DNA of 23,706 nucleotides, taken from Falciphora oryzae. Taxonomy: Eukaryota; Ascomycota; Sordariomycetes; Magnaporthales; Magnaporthaceae. The translations under genes were made by a program, and so were the position numbers. Positions 1 to 23,462 of the stretch are shown piece by piece. The notes under the pieces are model-generated. The model had not been told where the DNA came from and did not search any database. It saw only the letters and a program-made list of their open reading frames with translations. The DNA is taken from NCBI GenBank assembly GCA_000733355.1, contig JNVV01000009.1, positions 1,175,084-1,198,789 of the forward strand, read 5' to 3'. Every line of letters starts with the position of its first letter. Within the stretch, counting starts at the first letter, position 1.

Positions 1-160
1 AGCCGCCGTGGCCCTCGAGCGTCTGCAGGCACGCGCCGCTGGCCGCGTCCCAGATCTTGACGGTTCCGTCGCCCGACCCGTATCGGTCGCCCGACCCGGA
101 AGCGATGCGGCGGCCGTCGTGCGAGAACGCGACCGAGTTGACCGAGCCGCGGTGGCCCTC
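1..160 (-). repeat. Start of WD40 repeat array of NLR A with an internal micro-duplication
   Basis: The first WD40 unit begins at 160 and the next at 16, reading leftwards. The unit is 48 residues instead of 42. The extra six residues come from an 18-nt-period direct repeat (13-nt identical cores at 68-80 and 86-98), which duplicates the GSGD loop. The rest of the array lies outside the window. The unit is otherwise nearly identical to the repeats of copy B (SVAFSHDGRRIASGS, TVKIWDAASGACLQTL). Confidence 0.85.
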
Positions 161-2210
161 GAGCGTCTGCAGGCACGCGCCGCTGTGCGCGTCCCAGTTA
201 TCTCCCATTACTGGCTGGGTCGTAATCCATTCCACCTCGTGTTGGAATAGCTCTTTTACGATACTGCGGGATGGGCTGAACACAAGTGCTGAACCGTATG
301 TCTGGAGGGGGCTGTTCTCGATTGGTCCTCTGTGGTGTAGGATGAATCGGTGCGCATCGCGGACCAAATCGCTTAATCCAGATGCTCCTGTTCGCCCCTA
401 CAGTGGAGTTAGGATAGTTTTTAAAAGTGGTAGCAGCTAGAACGTACCTGTAGCAAGCGCTCGAGTTTTTGTACCGACATGATCCCCTCAGTTATGCTTC
501 GGAAAAGGCTAAGTGCTTCGAGCCAGTAAAGATATCGGTTTTGGAGGAACGTATCGACGGCGGCGCCGTCTTTGAGGTCTTCGTATAGTCCAGATGTCAC
601 GGCTCTCCCCTTACAATAATGTTAGAAGCAGCTTAAAAGGGTATTATAAAAGGGCTTACCTGAGATAAAGCGCCGAGTTTTGCAAACAGAGGGATTCTTC
701 TCGAGAGACCTGGCGGAAACCTAAACGGATGCCGCCGGTGGAGGTATGGCGTTCGCGGAAGGGTGTCGACCTTGATGCTCTCTTCCAGGTGGTCTACCCA
801 GTAGACACACGAGTAACTTGCTGCCGCTAACGGATTTGGCTTAGGCTGCTTGGCCTGGCCGATGGGAGTTCCAGGGGCGCGCAGGTCGTACATATCGCGC
901 CGTAGCGTTTCGTTCATGACCTGCAGCGATTGCGTGAAGATAGCCCGGTGGGCAGCTGCAGAACCAGAGGGGAAGATGGTTGGGGCGGCCTTTCCCACCA
1001 GGTAGTCCTTGGCAGACTGATGCACGAAGTAAATAGTTTCGTCGCGAACTGTGAGGAAGGAGCCGCTTTTCGTGACAATCTTCCGAATGTATCCGACGTT
1101 GCCGGAAATCGCGTCTGGAAGTCCGGACACCGCGCCTAGCTCAAGCAGCCGAAGTGGGCGGTAGGCCAGTGTGGCCGCCGAAAGGACCAGCCGGCAATAC
1201 TTTGTAAGTGTGCTAGCCGGTCGTTCAATCTGCTCCATCATCCGCGCGTACAAACCACCAAGGCCTTTTGGTACCTCGCCGACCACCTGCCGCACCTCCC
1301 AGGGATCCTCCAGGTCTTCGAGTTCTTGGACGATTAGGGCTACCCAAAGGAACGTTCCCTCGGCTTTTTCGAGGAGGACCTGTCGAACATGGTCCTGCAT
1401 TGAACGGTCGTCTTGCAGAAATTGGATTTGCGATGTCTTGTTGGCAATGTAAACTTTGATGGCTTGAGAGACGGAATCTGCGTTCTGCTGCAATTCCAGG
1501 CTGAGTATCGATTGCGAAGGTTTAAGCCCTGTATGCTGTTCAACGTTGTTCCGGCTGGAAATGATCCATTTGACGCACGGCAAGTTCGCTTCCTGGAGAA
1601 TGAACTTTAAAAGCTTGTCTTGGTCCTCCATGCATTCGTCGAGAGCGTCGATTATCACGATGATCTTTTCCAGGCTCGGATCACGCAGGATTCCCAAAAA
1701 GATGTTGCACAATGCAGCCCATACTTCCGCATCTCCAAAGCGCGGCTCCCCTGTGTCTTTGAATTTGTCCCGCACGTGCGAGCGAAGCGACGGCTGCTGC
1801 GTGTTCACGACCGTATAGATCAGACCGCGCAGGACAGCATGAGCGTTGCTGAGCTTGGGGTCGGTGGCTTGGCAGAAGAAGAAGGACAAAAGCGTCTCGG
1901 CTCGGGCGTCTGCCAGTTTCGTGGCAGGGCGTAGCTGGTCGATGATGCCGGAGAGCAGCATAGTCTTGCCCTTGCCGGGATCGCCCTTGATCCAAAGCAG
2001 CCGGCTGTCTTCGTCATCGCGCCAATGTTGGAAGTCGGGATGGTCGAGGATCCAGCGGTATGACTCCTCGAGGGCGGCGCCTCTTGTCTGATGAATGCCC
2101 GTCCGGACGTCGCGCGGGTCGGTCACTCCTAGGTAGTCGAGGAAGCGATCCTTGCTTTGTCGGCCTTCATGTTGCACGGTTCGACGTCAAATTGGAATTG
2201 CTAAAAGCGT
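1..2210 (-). repeat. Inverted duplication, left arm (NLR A)
   Basis: The left arm matches 9165 to the WD40 array of copy B in opposite orientation, including introns and intron positions. Similarity stops abruptly at about 2210 (A) and 9165 (B), inside the first intron, so the upstream intron sequence is not recognisably shared. The encoded proteins agree at roughly four residues in five by eye. There is no obvious C-to-T decay in either arm. Confidence 0.8.
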
Positions 2211-2442
2211 AGAGAGATAGGCGCGATCTCTTGGTACACACCTTCGGCAGGAGGATAAATATTCTGCGTCACATGCCTGTTTTTAAGATAAGGAGTTAGG
2301 CGAGGGCATCGTCCAAAGTATCACAGAATTGAGAGAGGACAATCGGAGAGAGGAAAAGAAGCTCCTACGAGTTAGGCGCATTTCCCTGTATAGCTATGAT
2401 AGACTTATCGGTGCTCCAGTGATAATTGTCGGTATTAGCCAT
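1..2442 (-). CDS. NACHT-WD40 NLR copy A, 3' end beyond window
   Basis: This is a STAND-type NLR of the fungal HET-D/HET-E/NWD group, a cytosolic receptor whose WD40 repeats sense a ligand and whose NACHT ATPase drives oligomerisation. Exons inferred: 2369-2442, 660-2154, 448-609 and 1-397, with the last running off the window. The last two introns are each 50 nt, with GTAAG/GTACGT donors and CTAAC branch points. Exon 2 encodes Walker A GDPGKGKT, a Walker B-like IIDALDEC, and the HQSAKDYL and LELGAVSGLP blocks typical of these NLRs. The short first exon starts at ATG 2442 in good context (A at -3, G at +4) and contains WSTDKSIIAIQGN, which resembles a HET-s-related amyloid motif. Its donor GTAGGA is weak. 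It joins in phase to the acceptor before 2154. Compared with copy B, exon 2 is about 33 codons longer near its 3' end. The family call is firm; the first exon is inferred. Confidence 0.88.
2369..2442 (-). other. Proposed first exon of NLR A with HRAM-like motif
   Basis: The exon gives 24 codons plus two bases, ending PNS across the junction. Its core WSTDKSIIAIQGN has an aromatic residue, then T, eight residues and G-N. That is the spacing seen in the motifs of the HeLo and transmembrane genes in this window. The stop codon of the frame lies inside the proposed intron, just past the donor. In copy B the first exon ends NNS at the equivalent place. An alternative model adds a second mini-exon (about 2281-2235, acceptor after AAAAACAG) and is also in phase, so the exact junction needs RNA data. 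Confidence 0.55.
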
Positions 2443-3574
2443 GCTTGCTATTGAACACCGTAGTCGATGTGCGTCTGAGACGGTCCTGTTTGGTGCAGAC
2501 CTTCTGTCGCGGGTTCAGAAGACGTGATGTACCACGACAAACTACGCGCTGTACGTAAGGCTGTGTTGCTAAGGGAGCTGCGGCAGGATACTGGCACAGC
2601 CACTCTTACGCTGTAAACGCTTCTGATTCGTCCGAGAACTGGTTTATGACAGTGTGCACGCCGAACTCCGAAGCGGAGAAGCTTCCACGCGCGGGTGAAC
2701 TGGCTGAGAAGCAGAAGCTGAACACATACACACGGCGTTCTCGGCCAATGGTAGGTGTGCAGCCGTCACGCCCAAGCCAGCCGAGCAGCTTATTTGCCAC
2801 GAAATCCGTGAAAGAATGGGGAAGAGCACAGCAGCTCCTCGTCGTCGGGCTGCGACACGTCGGCAGTTTTGCTTTCCTCGAGGTCAACGTCTGGGTGGAG
2901 CATGGAGACGCCGTACACCAAAACGTCGGCTTGACACGCCCGCCACAGAAAACAGCACTGTGGACGGTACCCGACGTTCAAGCGTGCCTTTGCTGGGATC
3001 GTGCGCTGTCTCGCGTCGACGCGATTGGGACTATGGGACCAAGACGCTGCTGAAACAGTGCCGTTTCTCCGGACTCGACGCGACCAGACGCTGTGTCGAT
3101 CTGCCGCGTCGGACTGGACAAGACATGTCCGGAACATTTCATCAGTTGCCGCGCTTCGCGCCGCTCACTGCTCAGTTTTGCAGTAGAAAGATGACCGGCG
3201 CGACCGCGGTGTTACTTGTTGCAGCCCTGAGCCAACAGGTAGAAATTATTGGCCGTGGGTGCGATGTGATGTGACGTGGCTTGCTTGATCACCCGCTCCA
3301 ATTCCAGCGAGAGCTCCGACAGGCACCAATGTTTTCGTCCACGCAGCAATTGTGCATTTCTCTGCCTCCGCGGAATCGAGGTCGGGCTCTCACCATCCAT
3401 CTGTATTCACGGGAGTATGGTGCACCGTGCGAACAGCCCGGGAGGCGGCCAATTTGGGGCACCGGATTTGAGGCCTGGAGTCGCTCCTGGCCTCCACTCT
3501 GGGCTGTCAATGACCGGCTTTTGGGGCCTGAAGCAAAAATCCGGCCAGGTTGTCTGCTGGCGGGAGGTGTGATT
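2443..3574. other. Intergenic, no supported gene
   Basis: This lies upstream of NLR A and should hold its promoter. Open frames on both strands overlap each other and none shows a recognisable domain, conserved block or convincing splice signals. A minus-strand frame at about 3137-2790 has an acidic stretch (DVDLEESKTADVSQPDDEE) but nothing else to support it. Confidence 0.5.
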
Positions 3575-4147
3575 GCCACTATCTGTGGCCCCCACAAACT
3601 CGCGCCTTCTCAATCCGCGTCACGATCGCTCTAGAAAAGCCAACACATCCACGCGCCCAGTTACGGCAGCATGCTGAATTAGCGTTACGTCGCCCAAAAG
3701 AGGTCTTTGACATGCACAGCAGCTTCGCAAGGCAAGAGATCGATTCTTAGGCTCCTTGAAAGGGCCAAGCTTGGTAATCGGCTACAAGCCAATTTTATTA
3801 GATACCACCCAAAGCAAAATCGGGGACCCTTCCCCAAGCTCAAGTCCAACTGTCGAGAACATGATGATTTGCATCGAGACTACTTGAAGATGAAGTGACA
3901 TGAGGCACTCCATTACGCCTGTGATAACGCACTCTTTAGCGTTTAACGAAGCATGTTGACCGTCTGGAATGCCCTCCTATTACTGCCGTGATGTGACTGT
4001 CATCTCGTAGCGCCCTCCCGTATCCGTCCCCATCTTCTGGACAGTGCTATTCTCAGTGTTGAAGGTCGTCATGGGATTATCCTATGAATACGTGAGAATC
4101 AGTGTACACAACGACACTGTATGGACGTAACTCACTGCTGGCTGAAG
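3575..4147 (-). repeat. Segmental duplicate 1, carries the 3' end of the TM-motif gene
   Basis: This segment is colinear with 4838-5386 in the same orientation. Shared landmarks include CTCGCGCCTTCTC..ATCCGCGTCAC at the left, GAGGCACTCCA.TACGCCTGT in the middle, and CATCTTCTGGACA..GCT with the ATTATCCTATG intron boundary at the right. The homology covers the last intron, the motif exon and about 400 nt downstream. It stops a few bases into the preceding exon, at about 4147/5386. Confidence 0.8.
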
Positions 4148-4357
4148 TTGCGGAGTATGAGGTGGTGGCGGAGGCTGAGGCTGAGGTGGTGGCGGAGGCT
4201 GAGGCTGAGGTGGTGGCGGAGGCTGAGGCTCCGATCTCCGGCACTTCCTCCATACAAGATACAGAGAAATGATTCCACCCAGACCTCCCGGAATGCCGAC
4301 AGCGATGGCGATAATGTCTGATTGAGAAAGATTGTTGTTTGACATTGGTATTGTCAT
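3980..4357 (-). CDS. Small transmembrane, proline-rich protein with C-terminal HRAM-like motif
   Basis: Exons are 4136-4357 and 3980-4081, with a 54-nt intron (donor GTGAGT, branch-like CTCAC, acceptor ATAG) and a phase-0 junction. The protein has a short N-terminus (NNNLSQS), one hydrophobic helix (IIAIAVGIPGGLGGII then SLYLVW), a basic WRKCRR stop-transfer, a PQPPPPP repeat linker, then FNTENSTVQKMG and RYEMTV, ending SRQ. It has no HeLo domain. The motif exon matches the last exon of the neighbouring HeLo gene, with frame and key residues kept despite roughly 70% nucleotide identity. The start could be ATG 4357 or ATG 4345. An additional upstream exon ending at 4419 (48-nt intron, in phase) is possible but weak. 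I infer a membrane-anchored partner of the NLR; its function is unproven. Confidence 0.65.
4159..4230 (-). repeat. 24-nt minisatellite, three exact copies, encoding the Pro/Gln linker
   Basis: Units at 4159-4182, 4183-4206 and 4207-4230 are identical. On the minus strand they encode a PQPQPPPP-type linker between the membrane helix and the motif exon. Exact identity suggests recent expansion and likely length polymorphism. Confidence 0.95.
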
Positions 4358-4837
4358 TCGGTGTCCGCCACTGTCGCCGCAATAATCCACACGTTTCTTG
4401 TTCAGGTGTTGATTCTACGTATATGTGTGGTTGTCACGTGTGGCCGTGGTCTGTGCGGCGCACACTTTGTAGTTTAGCCCTCGGGCCGCTGCCTGCAGAG
4501 TTTTGCCGGCGTCCAAGATAGAACCACCAATCAGTTCCAGCACGAGGCGCCTTCCGCAGTGGTGGACACCGCTGGAAGGCGCGGTTGTGGCGTATTGCAT
4601 TTGGGTCCCGTTCGTGCATTGGTGACCCTCAATTACATGCCAATCATTCCCCGCATGTCGCATTGTGTGTGGCGGCCCCGGGCACCCGCAAGGGCCATGT
4701 GGCCCACCCAGACCTTGGCCGCCCGCAGATAGCAGGGACTTCTCCAGTCCCTGAACACCCACAGATTGCCATCTGTGTGCTCTTCCAGGACTAAATGCAC
4801 GTCTACAGTGGCCGGTGCAGACACGTGATACGTGACA
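4358..4837. other. Region upstream of the TM-motif gene
   Basis: A minus-strand frame from ATG 4663 to 4415 encodes a cysteine-containing stretch (QCTNG, HHCGRRLVLELIGGS, NYKVCAAQ). It could be spliced in phase (donor GTAGAA at 4418, acceptor at 4371) to the membrane-segment exon, which would make a larger single-pass protein. There is no signal peptide and the donor is weak, so I do not annotate it as an exon. Otherwise the region would be the promoter. Confidence 0.3.
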
Positions 4838-5386
4838 CACCATCTATGGCTCCCACAGACTCGCGTCTTCTCGATCCGCGTCACACCTACGCACCTAGCT
4901 GACGGAGTGGCAATATTTAAAATAGCGGTTGTCGCCCAGCGGAGGAAAGTCATCTACATGCACAGCCGAATCGAGAGAACGATTTCCAAGGCCAGTGGAA
5001 TTTGCTAATAGATCGATAGCCCATTTCATCTAATATCCAAAGCAAATCGAGGACCCTCCCCTAAGCTCAAGGTTATAATTATCGAATAAAGACATGCGTC
5101 AAGGCTGGAGAAAGGTGAAGTGACACGAGGCACTCCAGTACGCCTGTAACAACATAACGCACTCCCCAACACGACAAGTTCGAACAATGTTAAACCACCG
5201 GCTCACGGCATCTCGGGCACGTCCGCTGTGATCCGACAGTCATATTGTAATGCGATGCGCTATCCTGACCCATCTTCTGGACACTGCTCCCTTTGGTGTT
5301 GAAGGTTATGGCATTATCCTATGGGTGCGTAAGCGGCGGTGTACGTAACAGTGGAATGTATGAGCGGGACTTACTGCTGGCTTAAG
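4838..5386 (-). repeat. Segmental duplicate 2, carries the 3' end of the HeLo gene
   Basis: This is the partner of 3575-4147, placed directly behind the HeLo domain exon. It contains the last 56-nt intron, the motif exon (5190-5318) and the downstream flank of the HeLo gene. Both copies keep the splice sites and the open motif frame, whereas the downstream flanks have many indels. Confidence 0.8.
5190..5318 (-). other. Motif exon of the HeLo gene (prion-forming-domain-like)
   Basis: The exon holds 42 codons and a stop. It begins DNAIT, then FNTKGSSVQKMG, a short linker QDSAS, then HYNMTVG. This gives one full and one partial repeat, similar in layout to the two pseudo-repeats of HET-s but shorter. 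The tail (CPRCREPVV) is not shared with the transmembrane paralogue, whose frame stops earlier. Motif identity is inferred from spacing and from the matching first exon of NLR A. Confidence 0.6.
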
Positions 5387-6018
5387 AATCTTTTCCAGCG
5401 CTGACACCAAAAGTCATCCTGCCCAGTTGCAGCCTGATTCAAAACCCGGAAAGGCGCACTGAAGTCGGACACCTCGCGGGCAGCGAGCTCTAACTCTTTG
5501 GCCTCTTGAGCGGGAACAAGAGCCACAAGCTCGTTCGTTCGCTCTGTGATGCCGCCGACCAGGCTCTGCAGGCGCTCCTCCGAGAGAACAAACTTAGGCT
5601 TCTTGGTCCGGGATGCCCCGTTCATCCGCTTCCCCGACAGCTCTCGCATTTTCTCGTGGAGTGACCGCGTTATCAGGTCCAAGCCGCTGTGTTCGTCGAT
5701 TACAGGAGGGCTTCTGTCTGAATTCTCCCAGGCCGTGTTGAAACTCTCCAGAATCTGGCCGAGCTTCTCCCCCGCCTTGCGTTTGGCCGTTTCGGACCAG
5801 ACGTCTGGTGGCAACGCTGTCTCTTCGTCGACATGGCCGCCGCTCAGCCCCAAGGCGTCACCCCATCTTGACAGTCTCAGCTGTGCGTTGTACAGCTTCA
5901 GCACGGACGTCGCGAGGTTCCGGCCGGACGCGATCTGAATATATTTGAAACTGTTAATGACGTTGTTGTAGAGGCTGGCCAGACCGGAAACGTCCTTGAC
6001 AAAATCACCGGACGCCAT
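5190..6018 (-). CDS. HeLo-domain protein with C-terminal HRAM-like motif, apparently frameshifted
   Basis: HeLo is the alpha-helical cell-death domain of HET-S, which becomes membrane-active when the adjoining amyloid motif folds. Exon 1 (5375-6018) starts at ATG 6018 and encodes about 215 residues: an N-terminal hydrophobic helix (VSGLASLYNNVINSFKYIQI), the signature AQLRLSRWGDALGLSG near residue 50, then a helical region with EAKELELAAREVSDFSAPFR. The frame ends in the intron at GTAAGT (5374-5369); the acceptor is 5319. Exon 2 (5190-5318) is open in the frame encoding FNTKGSSVQKMG and HYNMTVG. By comparison with the transmembrane paralogue, the ancestral junction is phase 0, but exon 1 arrives one base off. 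The alternative frame reads EKILKPA up to the donor, so a one-base loss near 5405-5416 (beside an AAAA run) is likely. It is either a null allele or an assembly error. Confidence 0.8.
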
Positions 6019-7473
6019 TGCGAAGAGCTGAGTAGGGTGCTGTGCTGTCTGGAGGGAGCTTGAAGGCAGGCGCATCTGGACGATGTGTCGCGTACTTATA
6101 ACCGGCATGTCAAGCTGCCACACCGACAAAGCACGGAATTCAGCTGTTCGGAGAAGCAGAGCGCGGTTAAACCAAAGTCTGACAAGTGGTGGGAGACATC
6201 TGTCTTTGCGTCAGATCCGGGCAACTATTTACAGGGCCGGGCGACTATTGGGGGCAATGCACGCAGCTCCGTTGTGCGAGTTTGGCCATTGCCAATCACT
6301 CCCTGAAAGCGCTTATCGTTGCTCTGCATTGCTTTCTATTGTTCCCATTAGGGGCGAAGGTGGTATCACCTGTTCTCATTGCACGAAAGTTACTGGCAGG
6401 GACCACGGGACTGCAGCCGCCATCCGCTTTGAGGCAATCCGGAATTTTGCGGCATTTGTTCCACCGCACTTGACCATGCACCTGCATGGAACTTCTGTGT
6501 GCCATTGGCGACAAGGGAGAGGGAAATGGAGGGCGAGGGCGGATTTGGCACTTTAGCTGATTTACGATTGGCGCAGCTGCTCCATTGGATAGCTGCATCC
6601 TGTAGATATCGTCCGATATTTGCAGAGCCATGCAGATCTTCAATTAACACGCAAAGAATGAGGCCCGCCTGTTGGTGCAGTAGCCTTATTTGCAGACTTC
6701 GTCCGAAGCCTCGCCTTGCTCAGCCAGGATGGGTGTGCGTCCCCATATTTTGCAGGGCAACTGAACCTGACGTATCGCTACCCCTCCGGACGTGGCGCGA
6801 ATTCTGGTGGCGAACCGCTGGCCTCATTGCCGGCGACACGTGATTCGGGTCTGGAATGCCGCAGTACCCTGCTCGGGCGAAGTTGAGGGCATCCTGTAGC
6901 AGCCGTTCTTTAATCCGCTAGGAATGTATTGTATGTGCGGCCGGAAATGGGAAGCTCGATCATGAGAAATCGCCCTCCCCGCGGCCGCTGCCCTGCCTGG
7001 ATGTGGCTGTCGTGCCTTGGAGCCTGGGGGAGCGCCCCTAGTCTGGCTTGCGGCCTCGCCTTGAGCAGACTTAGCGCCGGCTTTGCTTCCTGGTCCGCGC
7101 CGTCGCCCGGTTGCTGCTTTCCTTGGCAGCTGTCCTGGGCACCGACTCCCTCCAAGGGCCCTTCGGGGCGGGCGTGACCGAGCGGTGGGACACTAACTGG
7201 TGACCGACTGGACGCGACAGGGCGGACGCTATTTAGTCGCATCTTGCTGCGATTTCTCTGCGGCCTAAGCTAAAAGCTCAAGACGATTGGTCGTAGACGC
7301 CAGATCATTTGCAACTAAATTCTCGCACCTGCGCAACCTCTGGTATCACAGCTACACTGCCCGCCCTGGCTTTACGCCGCTTATGCGCGGCAGTGGCCTA
7401 TAATGTGTTTCCAGGCCAAGGCACTGACCGAAACAGGATGAGCAACCTTGTGCCGCTTGCAATTACTGTCCAC
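6019..7473. other. Intergenic, no supported gene
   Basis: This region lies between the HeLo gene start and the 3' end of the truncated HeLo gene. The open frames on both strands are low-complexity or mutually overlapping and carry no recognisable domain. It presumably contains the HeLo promoter near 6020-6200. Confidence 0.5.
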
Positions 7474-7788
7474 CTAGTGTCCCTTCCTGCTGCTTCTATC
7501 GGCTCCAATCGTCATTTCGTAGCGGGCCTGCTTCTCCTGCTCCTCATCGAGCCGGAATGAGCCCGAGCTCTTCAGCGACTCCTCGTCTTCAATCCGCGGA
7601 CCTGCGAGGCCGGCCGCTTTGCCCCAGCGCGTCAACCTCAGCTGCGCATCGTCCAGCTTCACGAGCAGCGACTGCAGCCGCGGAGCCGCCTGCTTGGCGA
7701 CGAGGACGTAGTCGAACCAGGTTATAGCCGTGTTGAAGAGGTTGGCTAGCCCAGACGCCGCTCCGATTCCTTCTGCGACGCCCGTCAT
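7474..7788 (-). pseudogene. Truncated HeLo-domain gene, N-terminal part only
   Basis: The 104-residue frame starts MTGVAEGIGAASGLANLFNT, the amphipathic first helix typical of HeLo proteins, followed by DAQLRLTRWGKAAGLAG, which aligns with AQLRLSRWGDALGLSG of the other HeLo gene. After EEQEKQA the helical core (about 120 residues) is missing and the protein ends RYEMTIGADRSSRKGH. The RYEMTI part resembles RYEMTV and HYNMTV of the two motif exons, at both the DNA and protein level. This suggests an internal deletion that joined the N-terminal HeLo part to the end of a motif exon. No intron is seen. It lies divergently from NLR B, as a former partner might. It is likely non-functional as an effector; a small regulatory role cannot be excluded. 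Confidence 0.65.
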
Positions 7789-8131
7789 TTCGACTCGTGT
7801 GTGTGTCAATAATGATTATGGGTTCGGAGGAGCTTGATACGGGACTTTTTAGCGCATACTTCCTGGGGCATGCAGGACGTATTTGTACCAAATAAACCGG
7901 GCGTAAATGCGCCCAGCAAATATTGGGTTACTGCAGAAGCGGAGTCGCCGGAAATGCAGACGTGCTGCATACCTGCGGCTGAAATACGCCCATTCAGCCG
8001 CTTTCCGGGGCTGCTCGCCTGGACTTCGAAAGCTGCCATACGCTAACCAGCGATTCGCTCAAGTGCGGAGACATGACGCGACAACACAACGCGATTCGTC
8101 AGATGCGTGAGGGCCCAATCCCCCCACCCGG
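7789..8131. other. Intergenic, part of the divergent region before NLR B
   Basis: I see no gene here. It would hold the promoter of the truncated HeLo gene on the minus strand and leads into the foldback element. Confidence 0.5.
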
Positions 8132-8634
8132 CTGCCGCGGCAGCAAGTACTTGTGCGGATTAAAAGATCTCGCACGAATCGGCCCTCTGGGGATTAGGCG
8201 GCACGGCAATCTGTCGTTTTTCGGTCAATCTGTCGTTTTTTTGGGACACTTCCCCATACAAATTAACAGTGATTTAATGTTCCCTCGCATCAGCACGTGC
8301 CACGCCCATCCGCGGGCAGCGAGCTCTGTCTAAAGCACAACCGAAGCCAGGCGCGCATTCACAAGCCGGCGTGCTTGCGCAAACTGTGTTATTTCGTTAG
8401 CTGTGCTTCAGTGAATTAATTGCTGCTATTCGTGATGAGGTAGATTTGGTTGGGCGGGTTGCGCGCTAAAGTGAGGGTACATTAATGCACGGCTAATTTT
8501 GTATGGGAAAAAATGTCCTAAAAAAAACGACAGATTGACTAAAAAACGACAGATTGCCGTGCCGCACTCTATCCTCAAAGGGCCGATCGAGTGCGGGGCG
8601 CTTTTAGCCCGCACAAGTAGCTGCCCAAAGGCAG
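8132..8634. mobile_element. MITE-like foldback element with ~170-nt inverted arms
   Basis: The left arm (about 8132-8300) is the imperfect reverse complement of the right arm (about 8461-8634). Strongly shared parts are TACTTGTGCGG near the tip, GGCACGGCAATCTGTCGTTTTT, a second TCAATCTGTCGTTTTTT directly after it, CCCATACAAA and TTAATGT.CCCTC on the inner side. Each tip carries a small palindrome (CTGCC....GGCAG). The central loop of about 160 nt has no coding capacity. I see no clear target-site duplication, so the superfamily is unassigned. It sits about 350 nt upstream of the NLR B start. Confidence 0.75.
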
Positions 8635-8987
8635 TAAGAGGCGATAATACAGGCAATGGCCTGATATCTGCATTGGCTTAACGTTAGCGCAGTACTGCCA
8701 TATCTTTGTCAAGGGGTATGCATAACTATGCCGCGCCTTTCACGGGACCAGCCCCGCCGTTTGCGGCGGCTTTGAGCCCGACAACCCGCATTTCTCAGTC
8801 CTACGAAATCAAGAGCAGGGTGCAAGAAAACAGTTCTCAGCTCTGCCTCACGGCGACGGCTCTCGTTCAACTAGGCCACCTACCGAACCGATTTGCTAGC
8901 GGTGCCGCTTTGAACAGCAATCGTCGCATGTCTTCGACCCCGTCACAGAGCAGACCAAGAATGGCACCGCCTGATGCAGTCCCGGCC

Positions 8988-9049
8988 ATGGATCACCAGC
9001 ATTACGAGATCCGAGCAACGACCATGCATGCTGGCCCTTCAAATAATTC
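8988..9049 (+). other. Proposed first exon of NLR B
   Basis: The exon gives 20 codons plus two bases, then the strong donor GTAAGG at 9050. It splices in phase only to the AG at 9220-9221, about 31 nt after the CTGAC branch candidate at 9187. The core HYEIRATTMHAG followed by PSNNS resembles an HRAM with a shortened middle. The Y, I/W and A/T positions line up with copy A, while the flanking intron does not align. Confidence 0.5.
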
Positions 9050-12000
9050 GTAAGGACATGTCGACGACTGTATTACTTCAAGGAAGAGTATTAACATAGT
9101 ATAATTCCAGAAGCTATCATATGCATCATCATACGCATGTCGAAGGCACGTTTAACTACAAACCCTACGCTTTAGCAATTCCAATCTGACGTCGAACCGT
9201 GCAACATCAAGACCGACAAAGCAAGGATCGCTTCCTCGACTACCTGGGAGTGACCGACCCGCACGACGTCCGGACCGGCATCCATCAAACAAAAGGCGCC
9301 GCCCTTAAGGAGTCATACCGCTGGATCCTCGACCATCCCGACTACCAACGTTGGCGCGACGACAAAGTCAGCCGGCTGCTTTGGATCAAGGGCGATCCCG
9401 GCAAGGGCAAGACTATGCTGCTCTGCGGCATCATCGACCAGCTACGCCCTGCTACGAAATTTGCAAACACCGAAGCTAAGACGCTCCTGTCCTTCTTCTT
9501 TTGCCAAGCTACCGTCCCCAAGCTCAGTAACGCTCATGCTGTCCTGCGCGGTCTGATTTACATGGTCGTAAACAAGCAGCAGCCGTCCTTTCGCTCGCAT
9601 GTGCGGGATAAATTCAAGGACACAGGGGAGCCGCGCTTTGAAGATGCGGAAGCATGGGCTGCATTATGCAACATCTTTTTGAGCATCCTGCGTGATCCGG
9701 ACCTGGAGAAGATTATTGTCGTCATTGATGCTCTCGACGAATGCGTGCAGGACCAAGACAAGCTCCTAGAGTTCATTTTCCAGGAAGCGAACTTGCCGCG
9801 CGTCAAATGGATCATTTCCAGCCGGAACAACGTCGAGCAGTGTACACGGCTAAAATCTTCGCAGTCGATCCTCAGTTTGGAGTTGCAGCGGAACGCAGAT
9901 TCCGTCTCTCAGGCTATCGAAGCTTACATTGCCAACAGGACATCGCAACTCCAATCTCTGCAAGACGACCCTTCACTGCAGGACTACGTTCGACAGGTCC
10001 TCCGCAGGAAAGCCGAGGGAACGTTCCTCTGGGCGGCCCTCGTCGTCCAGGAACTCAAAAAAGTTCACCGCTGGGAGGTGCGACAGGTGATCGACGACGT
10101 GCCGAAAGGCCTTAATGATTTGTATACGCGGATGATGGACCAGATTGGACGGCAGGCGAGCATAGCAGAGTACTGTCGACTGGTCCTTTCAGCGGCCACG
10201 CTAGCTTACCGCCCACTTCGGCTGCTTGAGCTAGGCGCAGTATCTGGACTTCCAAACGAGATTTCCAGCAACGCACAAAACATTCGCGAAATTGTCGGGA
10301 TGAGCGGCTCCTTCCTCACAGTTCGCGACGAAACTACCTACTTCGTGCATCAGTCTGCCAAGGACTACTTGGTTGGAAAGGCCGCACCAACCATCTTCCC
10401 TTCTGGTGCTGCAGCTGCCCACCGCGGAATCTTCACACAATCACTGCAAACTATGGAAAAGACGCTACGGCGCGATATGTACGACCTGCGCGCCCCTGGA
10501 ACTCCCATCGACCAGGCTAAGCAGCCTGAGCCAGATCCGTTAGCGGCAGCAGGTTACTCGTGTGTCTACTGGGTAAACCACCTGGAAGAAAGCGCGAAAC
10601 TCGGCGCTTTATTTCAGGTAAGCCCTTTTATCATCCCCTTTTACGCTGTTTCTAACGTTATCGTAAGGGGAGCGCAATGACGTCCGGACTATGCGAAGAC
10701 CTCCAGGACGGCGGCGCCGTCCATACGTTCCTCCGAAACCGATATCTCTATTGGCTCGAGGCATTTAGCCTTCTCCGAAGCATGACGGAGGGGATCATAT
10801 CGGTACAAAAACTCGAGCGCTTGCTACAGGTACGTTCTAGCTGCTACTTTTTCTAAGTACTATCCTAACTCCACTGTAGGGGCGAGCAAAAGCATCTGGA
10901 TTGAGCGATTTGGTCCGCGATGCGCACCGATTCATGCTATACCACAGAGGACCAATCGAAAACAGCCCCCTCCAGATATACGGTTCAGCGCTTGTATTCA
11001 GCCCATCCCGCAGCATCATAAAGGAGCTATTCCAACACAAGGTGCCAAAATGGATTACGACCGAGCCAGTAATGGGAAATAACTGGGACGCGCACAGCGG
11101 CGCGTGCCTGCAAACGCTCGAGGGCCACGGCGGCTGGGTCAACTCGGTCGCGTTCTCGCACGACGGCGGCCGCATCGCTTCCGGGTCGGACGACCGAACC
11201 GTTAAGATCTGGGACGCGGCCAGCGGCGCGTGCCTGCAAACGCTTAAAGGCCACGGCGGCTCGGTCTACTCGGTCGCGTTCTCGCACGACGGCCGCCGCA
11301 TCGCTTCCGGGTCGGGCGACGGAACCGTCAAAATCTGGGACGCGGCCAGCGGCGCGTGCCTGCAAACGCTCGAGGGCCACGGCGGCTTGGTCAGGTCGGT
11401 CGCGTTCTCGCACGACGGCGGCCGCATCGCTTCCGGGTCGCGCGACGGAACCGTCAAGATTTGGGACGCGGCTAGCGGCGCGTGTTTGCAAACGCTGGAG
11501 GGCCACGGCGGCTCGGTCAACTCGGTCGCGTTCTCGCACGACGGCCGCCGCATCGCTTCCGGGTCGGACGACCGAACCGTCAAGATCTGGGACGCGGCCA
11601 GCGGCGCGTGCCTGCAGACGCTCAAAGGCCACGGCGACTGGGTCAGCTCGGTCGCGTTCTCGCACGACAGCCGCCGCATCGCTTCCGCGTCGCACGACCG
11701 AACCGTCAAGATCTGGGACGCGGCCAGCGGCGCGTGCCTGCAGACGCTCGNNNNNNNNNNNNNNNNNNNNNNNNNNNNNNNNNNNNNNNNNNNNNNNNNN
11801 NNNNNNNNNNNNNNNNNNNNNNNNNNNNNNNNNNNNNNNNNNNNNNNNNNNNNNNNNNNNNNNNNNNNNNNNNNNNNNNNNNNNNNNNNNNNNNNNNNNN
11901 NNNNNNNNNNNNNNNNNNNNNNNNNNNNNNNNNNNNNNNNNNNNNNNNNNNNNNNNNNNNNNNNNNNNNNNNNNNNNNNNNNNNNNNNNNNNNNNNNNNN

Positions 12001-12945
12001 NNNNNNNNNNNNNNNNNNNNNNNNNNNNNNNNNNNNNNNNNNNNNNNNNNNNNNNNNNNNNNNNNNNNNNNNNNNNNNNNNNNNNNNNNNNNNNNNNNNN
12101 NNNNNNNNNNNNNNNNNNNNNNNNNNNNNNNNNNNNNNNNNNNNNNNNNNNNNNNNNNNNNNNNNNNNNNNNNNNNNNNNNNNNNNNNNNNNNNNNNNNN
12201 NNNNNNNNNNNNNNNNNNNNNNNNNNNNNNNNNNNNNNNNNNNNNNNNNNNNNNNNNNNNNNNNNNNNNNNNNNNNNNNNNNNNNNNNNNNNNNNNNNNN
12301 NNNNNNNNNNNNNNNNNNNNNNNNNNNNNNNGCCACGGCGGCTCGGTCTACTCGGTCGCGTTCTCGCACGACGGCCGCCGCATCGCTTCCGGGTCGGACG
12401 ACGGAACCGTCAAGATCTGGGACGCGGCCAGCGGCGCGTGCCTGCAGACGCTCGAGGGCCACGGCGGCTCGGTCTACTCGGTCGCGTTTTCGCACGACGG
12501 CCGCCGCATCGCTTCCGGGTCGGGCGGCGGAACCGTTAAAATCTGGGACGCGGCCAGCGGCGCGTGCCTGCAAACGCTTAACGTTGGCATAACCATCTCC
12601 AATCTCTCCTTCGATCTTACTGGCTCATTTCTCAACACTGATATTGGAACAGTCGCTCTTTTTGACTCGCCGACAACGCCGCTGGAGCCTCAACGGCATT
12701 GGCGGCGAGTTAACGGCGCTCAAGAGCCGCAGGAGCCGCAAAAGTCGCAAAAGCCTCGGTTCCGAGGCTACGGCGTCAGTCCCGACCGCGTCTGGATTTC
12801 ACGGGATTCGCAGGACCGGCTGTGGCTGCCGCGCGAGTACCGCCCGGTTTGTTCGGCTGTAGCGCCGTCGGGGTTAGCCTTGGCGCTTGGCTGCGCGTCC
12901 GGACGCGTGCTGATTTTTGGGTTTTCGGCTGAGGCTTGCGATTGA
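8988..12945 (+). CDS. NACHT-WD40 NLR copy B, interrupted by assembly gap
   Basis: Exons inferred: 8988-9049, 9222-10617, 10668-10829, and 10880-12945 including the gap. Introns are 172, 50 and 50 nt, with GTAAGG, GTAAGC and GTACGT donors and CTGAC/CTAAC branch points. A short first exon (M at 8988 in GGCCATGG context; HYEIRATTMHAG, ending SNNS) is followed by the NACHT module: Walker A GDPGKGKT, Walker B-like VVIDALDEC, and HQSAKDYL. Exon 3 has the usual FLRNRYLYWLEAFSLLRS helix, then SPLQIYGSALVFSP and the WD40 array. The C-terminus (12580-12945) is a degenerate non-repeat region ending at TGA 12943. Alternative in-frame starts exist at 8961 and upstream. The motif lacks about three residues compared with copy A. 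The reading frame changes across the gap, but the run of unknown bases has no reliable length, so this is not evidence of a frameshift. Confidence 0.88.
11120..12579 (+). repeat. WD40 repeat array, 126-nt units
   Basis: Five complete 42-residue units precede the gap, starting at 11120, 11246, 11372, 11498 and 11624. Two follow it, with unit starts at 12328 (first bases lost in the gap) and 12454. Units are almost identical at the DNA level except at a few codons: residue 1 (E/K), 6 (W/S/L), 8 (N/Y/R/S), 16-17, and 24-26 (DDR, GDG, RDG, HDR, GGG). This is the pattern of homogenised repeats with diversified surface positions known from HET-D/HET-E/NWD proteins. Confidence 0.95.
11751..12331. 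other. Run of 581 unknown bases inside the WD40 array
   Basis: The gap falls exactly in the near-identical repeats, most likely an assembly collapse. A whole number of 126-nt units would require 3+126n bases; 581 does not fit, so the true repeat number is unknown. Confidence 0.99.
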
Positions 12946-21746: not shown

Positions 21747-22777
21747 CAGTGGGCACAGCGCGTCTCATCTGCCGCCGTAAAGCAAGGCGACGTTTCCAAA
21801 AGGCGCGTTGTGGGAGGACCATAGGCTGGCGGGCCGGTGCGGGAGGCAGCGGGCTTATGTGCGACGTAACTTCGTTGAAAAATCCCCTAGGCGTGCAGCC
21901 GAAGCCAAATACGTGGCTTGGGGTGCCAAATCAAGAAACCGGTGTGTTGGCAACCAGCCACAGAATTATGGAACTGCGACCTTGTCGGCAGGCGGTAACC
22001 ACCCGTTTGCATCCTGCTAATAGTTGATTGGCAGGAAATCGCTGATTTGGTGAATAAAAAGGGGAAGGAGAAGAAGAGGGTGGGGGCGTGTTTTTCATTT
22101 TGTTTTTTTTTAACTATCCCCGGTGACTGTTTTCAACGAAAGTTGCAAACGGGTGGCGGACGGTGGTGCATGCCAACGGGTGTACCCCACGGGTACGCTT
22201 CCGTGACCTTCGCACGAGGTATTGTAAGGTTCCGGGCCGGCCCACACGTCGCGTCGCGTCGCAGCCTCTTTGACCTTTTCCACCGTGTCGAGGATGCGTT
22301 TTAAGATTCGGCATCGAAATTTGGCCCCCTTTGGGACGCTCCTCCTTGACCCCCATCTAGGCAACCGCCTGCGAAGATGGGCGTTGATGGTACCGGTAAT
22401 AAGTATAGCCATGGGCAACCCCCCAATTGAATGCGCTTGGAAACCCATATATGGTTATCTATTCTGTCAACCGCGAGCAGTGCGTCCAGCATAAGCCTTG
22501 TTTGTCCTCCCTACTTTCCTTCCGTGTCCAACGTTTGGCCGGGCCTGGGGCGTTAGCGGCAAGTCTTCCGCTCGACCTTTACCGACAGCGTTTGCAAATC
22601 TACGACTGCGGTCGCGATATCCGTGGTACCAGCAACCCCAGATCGATAGCCGCATCGCCGATTTCTGCGCTAACCCGAGCCGTATTGCCGTGACCCTAGC
22701 CCCTGCAAGCCTTCACCAACCCCAAAGCATAAAACGACGGCCTGCGAAGCGTCACCACCGTTACCGAAAGTCCGCAC
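21747..22777. other. No supported gene
   Basis: Overlapping short frames occur on both strands without domains. Confidence 0.4.
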
Positions 22778-23462
22778 ATGCCAGGCCACACGGATGCCCA
22801 AATGCCAGCAACGCTTCAAAACAAAAGGGGATCTCAGGCAATGCAGCAAAACCCTACCCAACAAGGCGATACGGAGATTATCAGGTGTGTTTGCGGGGCC
22901 ACCAAGGAGGTCCATGGCTTGGGCGAGATATGGATCGCGTGTGACGAATGCTCCGTCTGGCAGCACACAGGCGGCGCGCACACCACGACGCGGGCGGGGA
23001 GAGCGGGCGGCCGAATCCAGACGGGCAAAAACGGCGGACGGCTATCGATACGTCTGTTTGGATTCATTTATATACAGCCAACAGTCAGTACAGCATCCGC
23101 CCCGCGGCGTGGCTTTCACGCCCAGGCTTCCAAGACCCGGCGACGAGAAGACGCAGAAGGAGACCAGGGCACCGGGGGGCCGCAAAGCCCAGTTCGGCCA
23201 GGCGGCGCGGCGGCTGGCCGAGCGGAGGTCGGCCGAGCAGGCTTCTGCCGCCGCCACCTCCTTACGCAAAAAACAAGGCTCCAAAGGTTCGAAAGACGTG
23301 CTGGGCAAGAGGGATAGAAACGCCGCCGCTTTGGCACGGATAAAAAAGACGTTGAACAGGTGGGATCAGAAGCTGTGGGAGAGGGACAAGAGAGCCACAC
23401 GGGAGGACTCGAAAAATGTCCTTCCAGATGGAGGAAAGGCTCCATCAATGTTGCCGCCCTAG
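22778..23462 (+). pseudogene. PHD-finger protein fragment
   Basis: From about 22870 the frame reads IIRCVCGATKEVHGLGEIWI then ACDECSVWQH. This is the first half of a PHD finger: C-x-C, C-x2-C, the conserved W two residues before H. It resembles Bye1/Cti6-type chromatin readers that bind methylated histone H3. The last zinc ligands (a Cys after the His, and the final C-x2-C) are absent. The sequence turns into Gly/Arg/Thr-rich low complexity, and a second frame ending at 23462 carries a basic coiled region (ARIKKTLNRWDQKLWERDKR). Without the remaining ligands it is probably a truncated or frameshifted remnant. Confidence 0.5.

What the first reader, a model, noticed from the sequence alone, without database searches (positions are those of the whole stretch)
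1..9049. A candidate NLR-HeLo-transmembrane amyloid signalling cluster with a shared T-x8-G motif
Seen: the proposed first exon of NLR A has WSTDKSIIAIQGN, the HeLo gene's last exon has FNTKGSSVQKMG, and the TM gene's last exon has FNTENSTVQKMG. They align without gaps as aromatic, N/S, T, two variable, S, one variable, V/I, three variable, G. Known: in Podospora the NLR NWD2 carries at its N-terminus a HET-s-related amyloid motif (HRAM) that templates the C-terminal motif of the neighbouring HeLo protein HET-S, triggering cell death. Inference: this locus encodes one receptor motif and two possible membrane effectors sharing a divergent HRAM subtype.
Basis: partly seen in the sequence, partly recalled or inferred. 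Interest (0 to 1): 0.88.

Follow-up and report, generated by a model that had tools for sequence, protein, structure and literature searches.

The report
Fungal NLR cluster sharing amyloid motif
A fungal immune receptor and two neighbouring membrane-related proteins carry the same short amyloid-like tag, which fits none of the named classes we could test, and one tagged protein is a tiny membrane-anchored protein of a kind we did not meet in the papers we searched.

Summary
The window carries two NLR systems: NLR A with a small transmembrane (TM) gene and a HeLo gene, and NLR B with a HeLo2 remnant. The shared motif is a 23-residue unit, [FWY]-x6-[VI]-x3-G-x6-[YFV]-x-[MQ]-x-[VI], on its own last exon in the TM and HeLo genes and spanning exons 1-2 of NLR A; NLR B has a divergent form. 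The same motif ends HeLo proteins of five other fungal species and begins Aspergillus and Penicillium NLRs. The HeLo-TM-NLR A cassette is duplicated elsewhere in the genome. All four NLR motif exons found lie within 2 kb of an effector motif exon (one only a half motif). The TM gene shows purifying selection (dN/dS 0.09), and its tail is a duplicated HeLo tail. 'HRAM subtype' is not supported: the receptor-side hydrophobic register does not fit and there is no second repeat. In the window the HeLo motif exon is out of frame and HeLo2 is an internal deletion, so the TM protein is the only intact motif-bearing effector here. Best reading: an NLR-amyloid-effector signalosome with an unassigned motif class and a probable new TM effector. 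Amyloid formation and expression are untested; the window's own NLR matches are weak taken alone.

The parts
2369..2442 (-). NLR A exon 1, first part of receptor motif (WSTDKSIIAIQGNAPNS)
   Evidence: 24 of 25 residues kept in the C40 copy
2242..2276 (-). NLR A exon 2, second part of the motif (HVTQNIYPPAE)
   Evidence: phase-consistent splicing, same introns in the C40 copy; register shared with Aspergillus/Penicillium NLR N-termini
660..2164 (-). NLR A exon 3, NPHP3_N/NACHT domain
   Evidence: Pfam PF24883 3.1e-36, PF05729 4.7e-13
1..609 (-). NLR A exon 4 (about 448-609) and start of the WD40 exon (1-397), which runs off the window
   Evidence: ORF list; exon layout read from the sequence by analogy with C40; the frame continues into an N gap in L056
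4136..4345 (-). TM gene exon 1: hydrophobic glycine-rich helix, basic residues, proline-rich linker
   Evidence: only other copy found in the genome is on C40
3980..4081 (-). TM gene exon 2: motif exon
   Evidence: dN/dS 0.048 against C40
5375..6018 (-). HeLo1 exon 1 (HeLo domain); reading frame changes near its 3' end relative to the C40 and C92 copies
   Evidence: Pfam HeLo 1.4e-16; comparison
5190..5318 (-). HeLo1 exon 2: motif exon, out of frame with exon 1 in this copy
7474..7788 (-). HeLo2 remnant: internal deletion fuses the HeLo N-terminus to the second half of the motif (QARYEMTIG)
   Evidence: Pfam HeLo 1.2e-13; longer relatives on C92 and C117; half motif found
8988..9049 (+). NLR B exon 1, divergent receptor motif (HYEIRATTMHAGPSNNS)
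   Evidence: second copy on C117
9111..9145 (+). NLR B exon 2, second part of the motif (SYHMHHHTHVE), GC-AG intron after it
9212..10617 (+). NLR B exon 3, NPHP3_N/NACHT domain
   Evidence: Pfam
10668..12945 (+). NLR B exon 4 (about 10668-10829) and WD40 exon (from 10880), with an N gap at 11751-12331
   Evidence: Pfam WD40; gap; exon 4 read from the sequence

Best explanation
The locus encodes a fungal NLR-amyloid-effector signalosome. NLR A senses a ligand through its WD40 repeats. Nucleotide-driven oligomerisation brings together its N-terminal 23-residue motifs, which fold into an amyloid template. The template converts the same motif at the C-terminus of the neighbouring effectors: a HeLo protein (relative of HET-S) and a 103-residue single-pass TM protein whose cytosolic tail carries the motif. 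Effector assembly at the membrane then damages it and triggers cell death or a barrier response. Shown here: the genes, the shared motif, its presence in other species on both the receptor and the effector side, cassette duplication, purifying selection on the TM gene, and homology of the TM tail with the HeLo tail. Inferred: amyloid folding, templating, ligand sensing, membrane topology and cell death. In the window's own copy the TM protein is the only effector whose motif is intact and in frame.
For: Pfam domains; a profile of 27 HeLo homologues matches HET-S/HET-s crystal chains 2WVO/2WVN/2WVQ at E 2.6e-54 to 4.5e-50. Motif exon in 6 own-genome places outside the window over two searches and at the C-terminus of 6 of 28 HeLo homologues. 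Receptor motif in the same register in Aspergillus/Penicillium NLRs; profile-profile E 6.4e-5 over 29 columns; reciprocal profile tests. Joint pattern: 12 of 12 effectors, 13 of 15 selected NLRs, 18 hits in 101,009 residues of the 148 proteins retrieved, all at the expected termini. The four NLR motif exons found (two A, two B) lie 1.4-1.8 kb from an effector motif exon, that beside NLR B on C9 being a half motif in a remnant. HeLo1-TM-NLR A collinear on C9 and C40. dN/dS: TM 0.088, HeLo1 exon 1 0.145, NLR A 0.32.
Against: No amyloid, expression or cell-death data. NLR A and NLR B alone score p 0.027-0.111 against the effector profile; NLR A against the TM peptide prefers another offset; NLR B fails the joint pattern, and its relatives in Chaetomium and Schizothecium (P0055, P0065) match no effector (p 0.44-0.96). 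Purifying selection is not shown on the receptor motif exons: NLR A exons 1+2 differ at 2 nonsynonymous and 0 synonymous of 36 codons, NLR B at 11 and 3 of 32. An NLR query over residues 1-75 found nothing at E <= 10, and the Aspergillus motif found nothing in the own genome. HeLo1 and HeLo2 in the window are broken. Three motif-bearing HeLo loci (C92 twice, one at a contig end, and C71) show no NACHT-type signature in the stretches read. TM homologues in other species were not searched.
Confidence: 0.72

Rival explanations
1. The TM protein is not an executioner but a membrane anchor, decoy or brake: it fixes the amyloid signal at a membrane, or titrates the NLR template, while a HeLo protein (the C40 copy, or other copies acting in trans) does the killing.
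For: The predicted TM segment is exposed from the start, so an obligate pore former would be expected to need some other control; in Chaetomium HELLP directs a second PP-motif protein, a lipase, to the membrane region (PMC7885112, passage). An intact HeLo1 copy exists on C40.
Against: Both HeLo1 copies whose start was read (C9, C40) have lost the hydrophobic character of the N-terminal helix (Kyte-Doolittle 0.53 against 1.82-1.89 in P0001, P0002, P0004, P0005 and P0007), the part tied to HET-S toxicity (PMC3531502, passages), whereas the TM protein has a helix scoring 1.93.
Confidence: 0.35
2. The locus is a decaying relic: duplicated NLR cassettes with broken effectors and no present function.
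For: HeLo1 frame broken and HeLo2 deleted in the window; C117 HeLo2 carries an insertion relative to C92; N gaps in the WD repeats leave the NLR ends unread.
Against: TM frames intact in both copies and NLR A frames intact up to the gaps; TM dN/dS 0.088, its motif exon with 5 synonymous and 1 nonsynonymous codon differences; the motif occurs on both partner types in other species.
Confidence: 0.15
3. The motif is simply a divergent HRAM or another already described class (for example NLR34 of PMC9815663), so nothing about the motif is new.
For: Conserved G with an aromatic eleven residues before it, and in the effectors HRAM position 18 is hydrophobic in 11 of 12. HRAM is broad: only 38 of 155 double-repeat proteins match PF11558 (PMC4518210, passages). 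NLR34 is an Ascomycota NLR motif listed without effectors; its logo is in a figure I could not see.
Against: Receptor-side register does not fit and no second repeat. In the sections read, PMC9815663 reports neighbouring or paired effectors in ascomycetes for PP, HRAM-type, sigma and PUASM motifs and one further PNP_UDP-linked motif.
Confidence: 0.25
4. The receptor-effector resemblance is chance similarity of short peptides.
For: Pairwise p values in the window are 0.06-0.20 and one prefers another offset; the joint pattern was written after seeing the sequences.
Against: Reciprocal profile tests, shared register, specific termini, no other hits.
Confidence: 0.07

Closest known systems
NWD2/HET-S of Podospora anserina (HRAM signalosome)
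   Same: NLR with N-terminal motif beside a HeLo protein with C-terminal motif; HeLo family homologous to HET-S
   Different: Different motif register, single unit rather than two 21-residue repeats, extra TM gene, NLR motif split over two exons
PNT1/HELLP/SBP (PP motif, Chaetomium globosum)
   Same: One NLR controlling two motif-bearing effectors in one cluster (PMC5485727, section headed 5; PMC7885112, passage)
   Different: No GxQxG or RHIM tetrad in any of 27 motifs; HeLo rather than HELL; TM protein rather than lipase
het-eN/sesA/sesB of Nectria (sigma motif)
   Same: Three-gene amyloid cluster (PMC5485727, section headed 5)
   Different: No PF17046 match at these loci; the genome has sigma-type hits elsewhere, on C60 and C78
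Unpaired NLR motifs of PMC9815663 (NLR34 in particular)
   Same: Short Ascomycota NLR N-terminal amyloid-like motif
   Different: Listed without effector partner; identity could not be tested because the logos are in figures

Membership tests
HeLo domain (PF14479) | Profile above curated cut-off and homology to HET-S/HET-s HeLo structures | tested here: met
   61.4 and 51.8 bits against cut-off 23.2; homologue profile to 2WVO E 2.6e-54
Fungal NACHT-WD40 NLR | NACHT plus WD40 repeats | tested here: met
   NACHT in both; WD40 by Pfam for NLR B, by reading the repeats for NLR A
Fungal NLR amyloid signalosome | Homologous motif at NLR N-terminus and effector C-terminus, adjacent genes | tested here: met
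   met at family level; weak for the window's NLRs taken singly
Fungal NLR amyloid signalosome | Motif forms amyloid, propagates as prion and activates the effector | not testable with these tools
   needs wet-lab work
HRAM | Hydrophobic at 5, 8, 10, 16, 18 and G at 19, R/K preferred at 15 (PMC4518210) | tested here: not met
   G19 in 27 of 27; position 8 hydrophobic in 25 of 27; position 15 hydrophobic in 12 of 12 effectors and 13 of 15 NLRs; 16 hydrophobic in 5 of 12 and 3 of 15; 18 in 11 of 12 and 2 of 15
HRAM | Usually two 21-residue repeats in the HeLo C-terminus | tested here: not met
   one 23-residue unit followed by at most about 20 residues in the HeLo tails read, C71 apart
HRAM | Match to HET-s_218-289 (PF11558) | tested here: not met
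   a weak test, since only 38 of 155 HRAM proteins match it
PP/RHIM | NxGxQxGxN core (PMC9815663) or [IV]Q[IVLC]G tetrad (recalled) | tested here: not met
   0 of 12 effectors, 0 of 15 NLRs
PUASM | FxGxGxQxxGxGxF (PMC9815663) | tested here: not met
   0 of 27
sigma (Ses_B/NACHT_sigma) | Pfam sigma models | tested here: not met
   no match; PF17046 only elsewhere in the genome
NLR34 motif of PMC9815663 | Published profile | not testable with these tools
   logo and profile not held

The most novel reading that the evidence does not exclude
A new kind of amyloid-controlled effector: a minimal single-pass membrane protein (glycine-rich helix, basic stop, proline-rich linker, amyloid motif) that arose when a duplicated HeLo tail exon was captured by a TM reading frame. 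It has taken over the membrane step from a HeLo protein that lost its own membrane helix, under a further class of fungal amyloid signalling motif used by NLRs from Sordariomycetes to Eurotiomycetes (class names recalled).
Probability: 0.33. Interest if true: 0.8.

Novelty: new variant of a known kind. Interest (0 to 1): 0.64.

Why it matters
One paper counts four families of fungal amyloid signalling motifs and its data set holds five (PMC12261475, passages). This adds a candidate family with members on both the receptor and the effector side. It also shows how such a circuit can gain effectors: HeLo proteins carry the motif on a separate last exon behind a conserved intron, relatives of the same HeLo lineage carry other motifs there, and a TM gene holds a copy of that exon. 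If the TM protein is an executioner, it is a much simpler membrane effector than a HeLo protein and a direct test of what an amyloid template needs in order to kill a cell.

Tried and rejected
Rejected: HRAM, PP, sigma and PUASM membership. Rejected: plain chance. Led nowhere: NLR search restricted to residues 1-75 (14 candidates, none at E <= 10); Aspergillus motif against the own genome; structure model of a HeLo homologue, mean pLDDT 59, best PDB match 2WVO at E 8.8e-4, too weak to add much; literature searches for a TM effector with an amyloid motif in fungi, whose listings named no such protein. Rows dropped: P0003 (near copy of P0001) from the effector profile; the C71 copy (degenerate second half) and C117 HeLo2 (same motif as C92) from the effector sets; from the 15-NLR count I left out P0037, P0044, P0055, P0064, P0065 and P0070, relatives that keep only part of the pattern or none. 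The NLR sets were chosen by eye from 120 listed proteins, of 4,296 found, and the joint pattern was defined after seeing them. In one search one non-motif tail (P0006, p 0.0115) and another (P0023, p 0.03) also had low shuffle p values, at low scores.


Full report
WHAT IS THERE. The window is the end of contig C9 of a 50.2 Mb fungal genome with at least 85 NACHT matches. NLR A runs leftwards from 2442. Its exon 1 (2369-2442), exon 2 (2242-2276) and exon 3 (660-2164) join in phase, with the same introns as in a second copy on contig C40; NPHP3_N/NACHT is recognised and WD40 repeats follow up to an N gap. Upstream on the same strand lie a TM gene (exons 4136-4345 and 3980-4081) and a HeLo gene, HeLo1 (5375-6018 and 5190-5318; PF14479). 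NLR B runs rightwards from 8988, and beside it a HeLo2 remnant (7474-7788) matches PF14479.

THE MOTIF ON THE EFFECTOR SIDE. A search with the TM motif exon found 7 places in the genome; one with the HeLo2 motif found 9, adding the C71 copy and the half copy in the window. They are the TM and HeLo1 genes on C9 and on C40, HeLo1 at the end of C92, HeLo2 on C92, C117 and C71, and the HeLo2 remnant. In C71 the motif is degenerate in its second half and runs on into further sequence. Among 28 HeLo homologues (of 1,025 candidates), 6 end with the motif (Purpureocillium twice, Diplogelasinospora, Byssothecium, Alternaria, Fusarium). Sixteen appear to run into a conserved intron and so show no last exon, 4 end with a different but similar motif, 1 with a sigma-type tail, and 1 is partial. 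So the motif sits on a last exon of its own behind a conserved intron, and relatives carry other motifs there.

THE RECEPTOR SIDE. The 120 listed NLR homologues (of 4,296 at E <= 1e-30) include a group, 11 of 12 named Aspergillus or Penicillium and one unnamed, whose N-termini read for example QQWDNNGGNVQFQGTATNPTFHMHIEH, joined to the same downstream sequence as in NLR A. NLR A, this group and the effectors share one register: aromatic at 1, V/I at 8, G at 12, aromatic or V at 19, M/Q at 21, V/I at 23. Profile-profile comparison of 10 effector tails and 19 NLR heads gives E 6.4e-5, probability 64%, 29 aligned columns without a gap between match columns (the TM row has one extra T before F). 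An effector-only profile scores p <= 0.01 on 11 of 124 NLR heads; ten are this group and one (P0128, a sigma-type NLR) lies in another register; NLR A has p 0.027 and 0.043, NLR B 0.083 and 0.111. An NLR-only profile built from 12 of these NLRs, without the window's own, puts motif effectors in the top 11 places by score of 35 tails (p <= 0.012; TM 0.011 and 0.012); HeLo2 of C92 is 12th with p 0.08 and that of C71 fails, p 0.23.

PAIRWISE RESULTS, FOR AND AGAINST. NLR A fits the Purpureocillium tail best (p 0.003) and two HeLo1 tails in the same register with p 0.06 and 0.20; against the TM tail its best offset is another one (p 0.09). NLR B fits HeLo2 best (p 0.027 and 0.013) and the A-type tails less well (0.08-0.56), a hint of two channels; but its relatives P0055 and P0065 fit no effector (p 0.44-0.96). 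The joint pattern fits 12 of 12 effectors and 13 of 15 selected NLRs, failing both NLR B rows. It occurs 18 times in 101,009 residues of the 148 retrieved proteins, always at the expected end, and in 558,354 six-frame residues of overlapping loci hits only effector tails. It was written after the sequences had been seen.

CLUSTERING AND SELECTION. The genome searches found each NLR head twice: A on C9 and C40, B on C9 and C117. All four lie 1.4-1.8 kb from an effector motif exon; beside NLR B on C9 that exon is the half motif of the remnant. The HeLo1-TM-NLR A order is the same on C9 and C40. C9 against C40: TM dN/dS 0.088 (10 synonymous and 3 nonsynonymous codon differences of 90), TM motif exon 0.048 (5 and 1 of 33), HeLo1 exon 1 0.145, NLR A 0.32, HeLo1 motif exon 0.315. 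The receptor motif exons show no such signal: NLR A 0 synonymous and 2 nonsynonymous of 36 codons, NLR B (C9 against C117) 3 and 11 of 32.

ORIGIN OF THE TM GENE. On C40 a stretch of about 580 bases is homologous between the TM and HeLo1 genes (443 identities in 614 columns). It begins 12 bases before the donor site and runs through intron, motif exon and 3' flank; the first exons show no comparable match. HeLo relatives in other fungi have the same exon, so I infer that the TM gene acquired the HeLo tail.

HOW IT MAY WORK. By analogy with HET-S, an activated NLR would nucleate amyloid and convert the tails. HET-S kills through a buried N-terminal membrane segment (PMC3531502, passages). The HeLo1 relatives P0001, P0002, P0004, P0005 and P0007 have a hydrophobic N-terminal helix (Kyte-Doolittle 1.82-1.89); the C9 and C40 HeLo1 copies carry K and D inside it (0.53), while the TM helix scores 1.93 and 1.98 with basic residues after it, which suggests a cytosolic tail. 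I infer that the TM protein may supply the membrane step. In the window HeLo1's motif exon is out of frame and HeLo2 is an internal deletion; intact copies exist elsewhere in the genome. That leaves the TM protein as the only intact motif-bearing effector of this copy.

COMPARISON. HRAM: G and the aromatic fit, and effector position 18 fits in 11 of 12, but position 15 is hydrophobic, positions 16/18 are polar in most NLR motifs, and there is no second repeat (PMC4518210, abstract and passages). PP/RHIM and PUASM patterns: 0 of 27. Pfam HET-s and sigma models: no match here. PMC9815663 (sections 6, 19 and 24 read, plus passages) lists unpaired NLR motifs such as NLR34; the logos are in figures I could not see, so identity with one of them is open. 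PMC5485727 (sections headed 4 and 5) and PMC7885112, PMC12258605, PMC12261475 and PMC12881547 (passages) mention no TM effector with such a motif in what I saw. No search for TM homologues outside this genome was made.

VERDICT. A genuine NLR-effector amyloid-type cluster with an unassigned motif class and a probable new effector type. Function, amyloid state and expression remain to be shown.

Noticed in passing
L048 about 4700-5900 (C71): A HeLo2 copy whose motif has a degenerate second half and continues into a linker, another tail-type intron and an unrelated reading frame: a chimeric tail.
   Followed up: partly
P0015, P0018, P0019, P0022: HeLo relatives end with a motif like TTFNNxxSKIxNQAxxMxIxGGQTIN, similar to but different from the window motif; possibly a bridge between motif classes.
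   Followed up: no
L045 about 6845-7140 (C117): The HeLo2 gene on C117 carries an insertion of a few hundred bases near the end of exon 1 compared with C92.
   Followed up: partly
window 9146-9211 and L046 about 6624-6693: GC-AG introns are needed for NLR B intron 2 and for the HeLo2 intron.
   Followed up: partly
G000 C60:23227 and C78:2275: Sigma-type (Ses_B) hits elsewhere in the same genome: a second amyloid signalling class.
   Followed up: no
window 22733-23314: Sub-threshold PHD-finger-like match (PF20826, 20.1 bits against cut-off 27) in a reading frame near the contig end.
   Followed up: no
P0076, P0083, P0091, P0092, P0101, P0113, P0115, P0139: NLR heads, mostly Trichoderma, share a different N-terminal pattern around SFGDNxTIxQ.
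   Followed up: no
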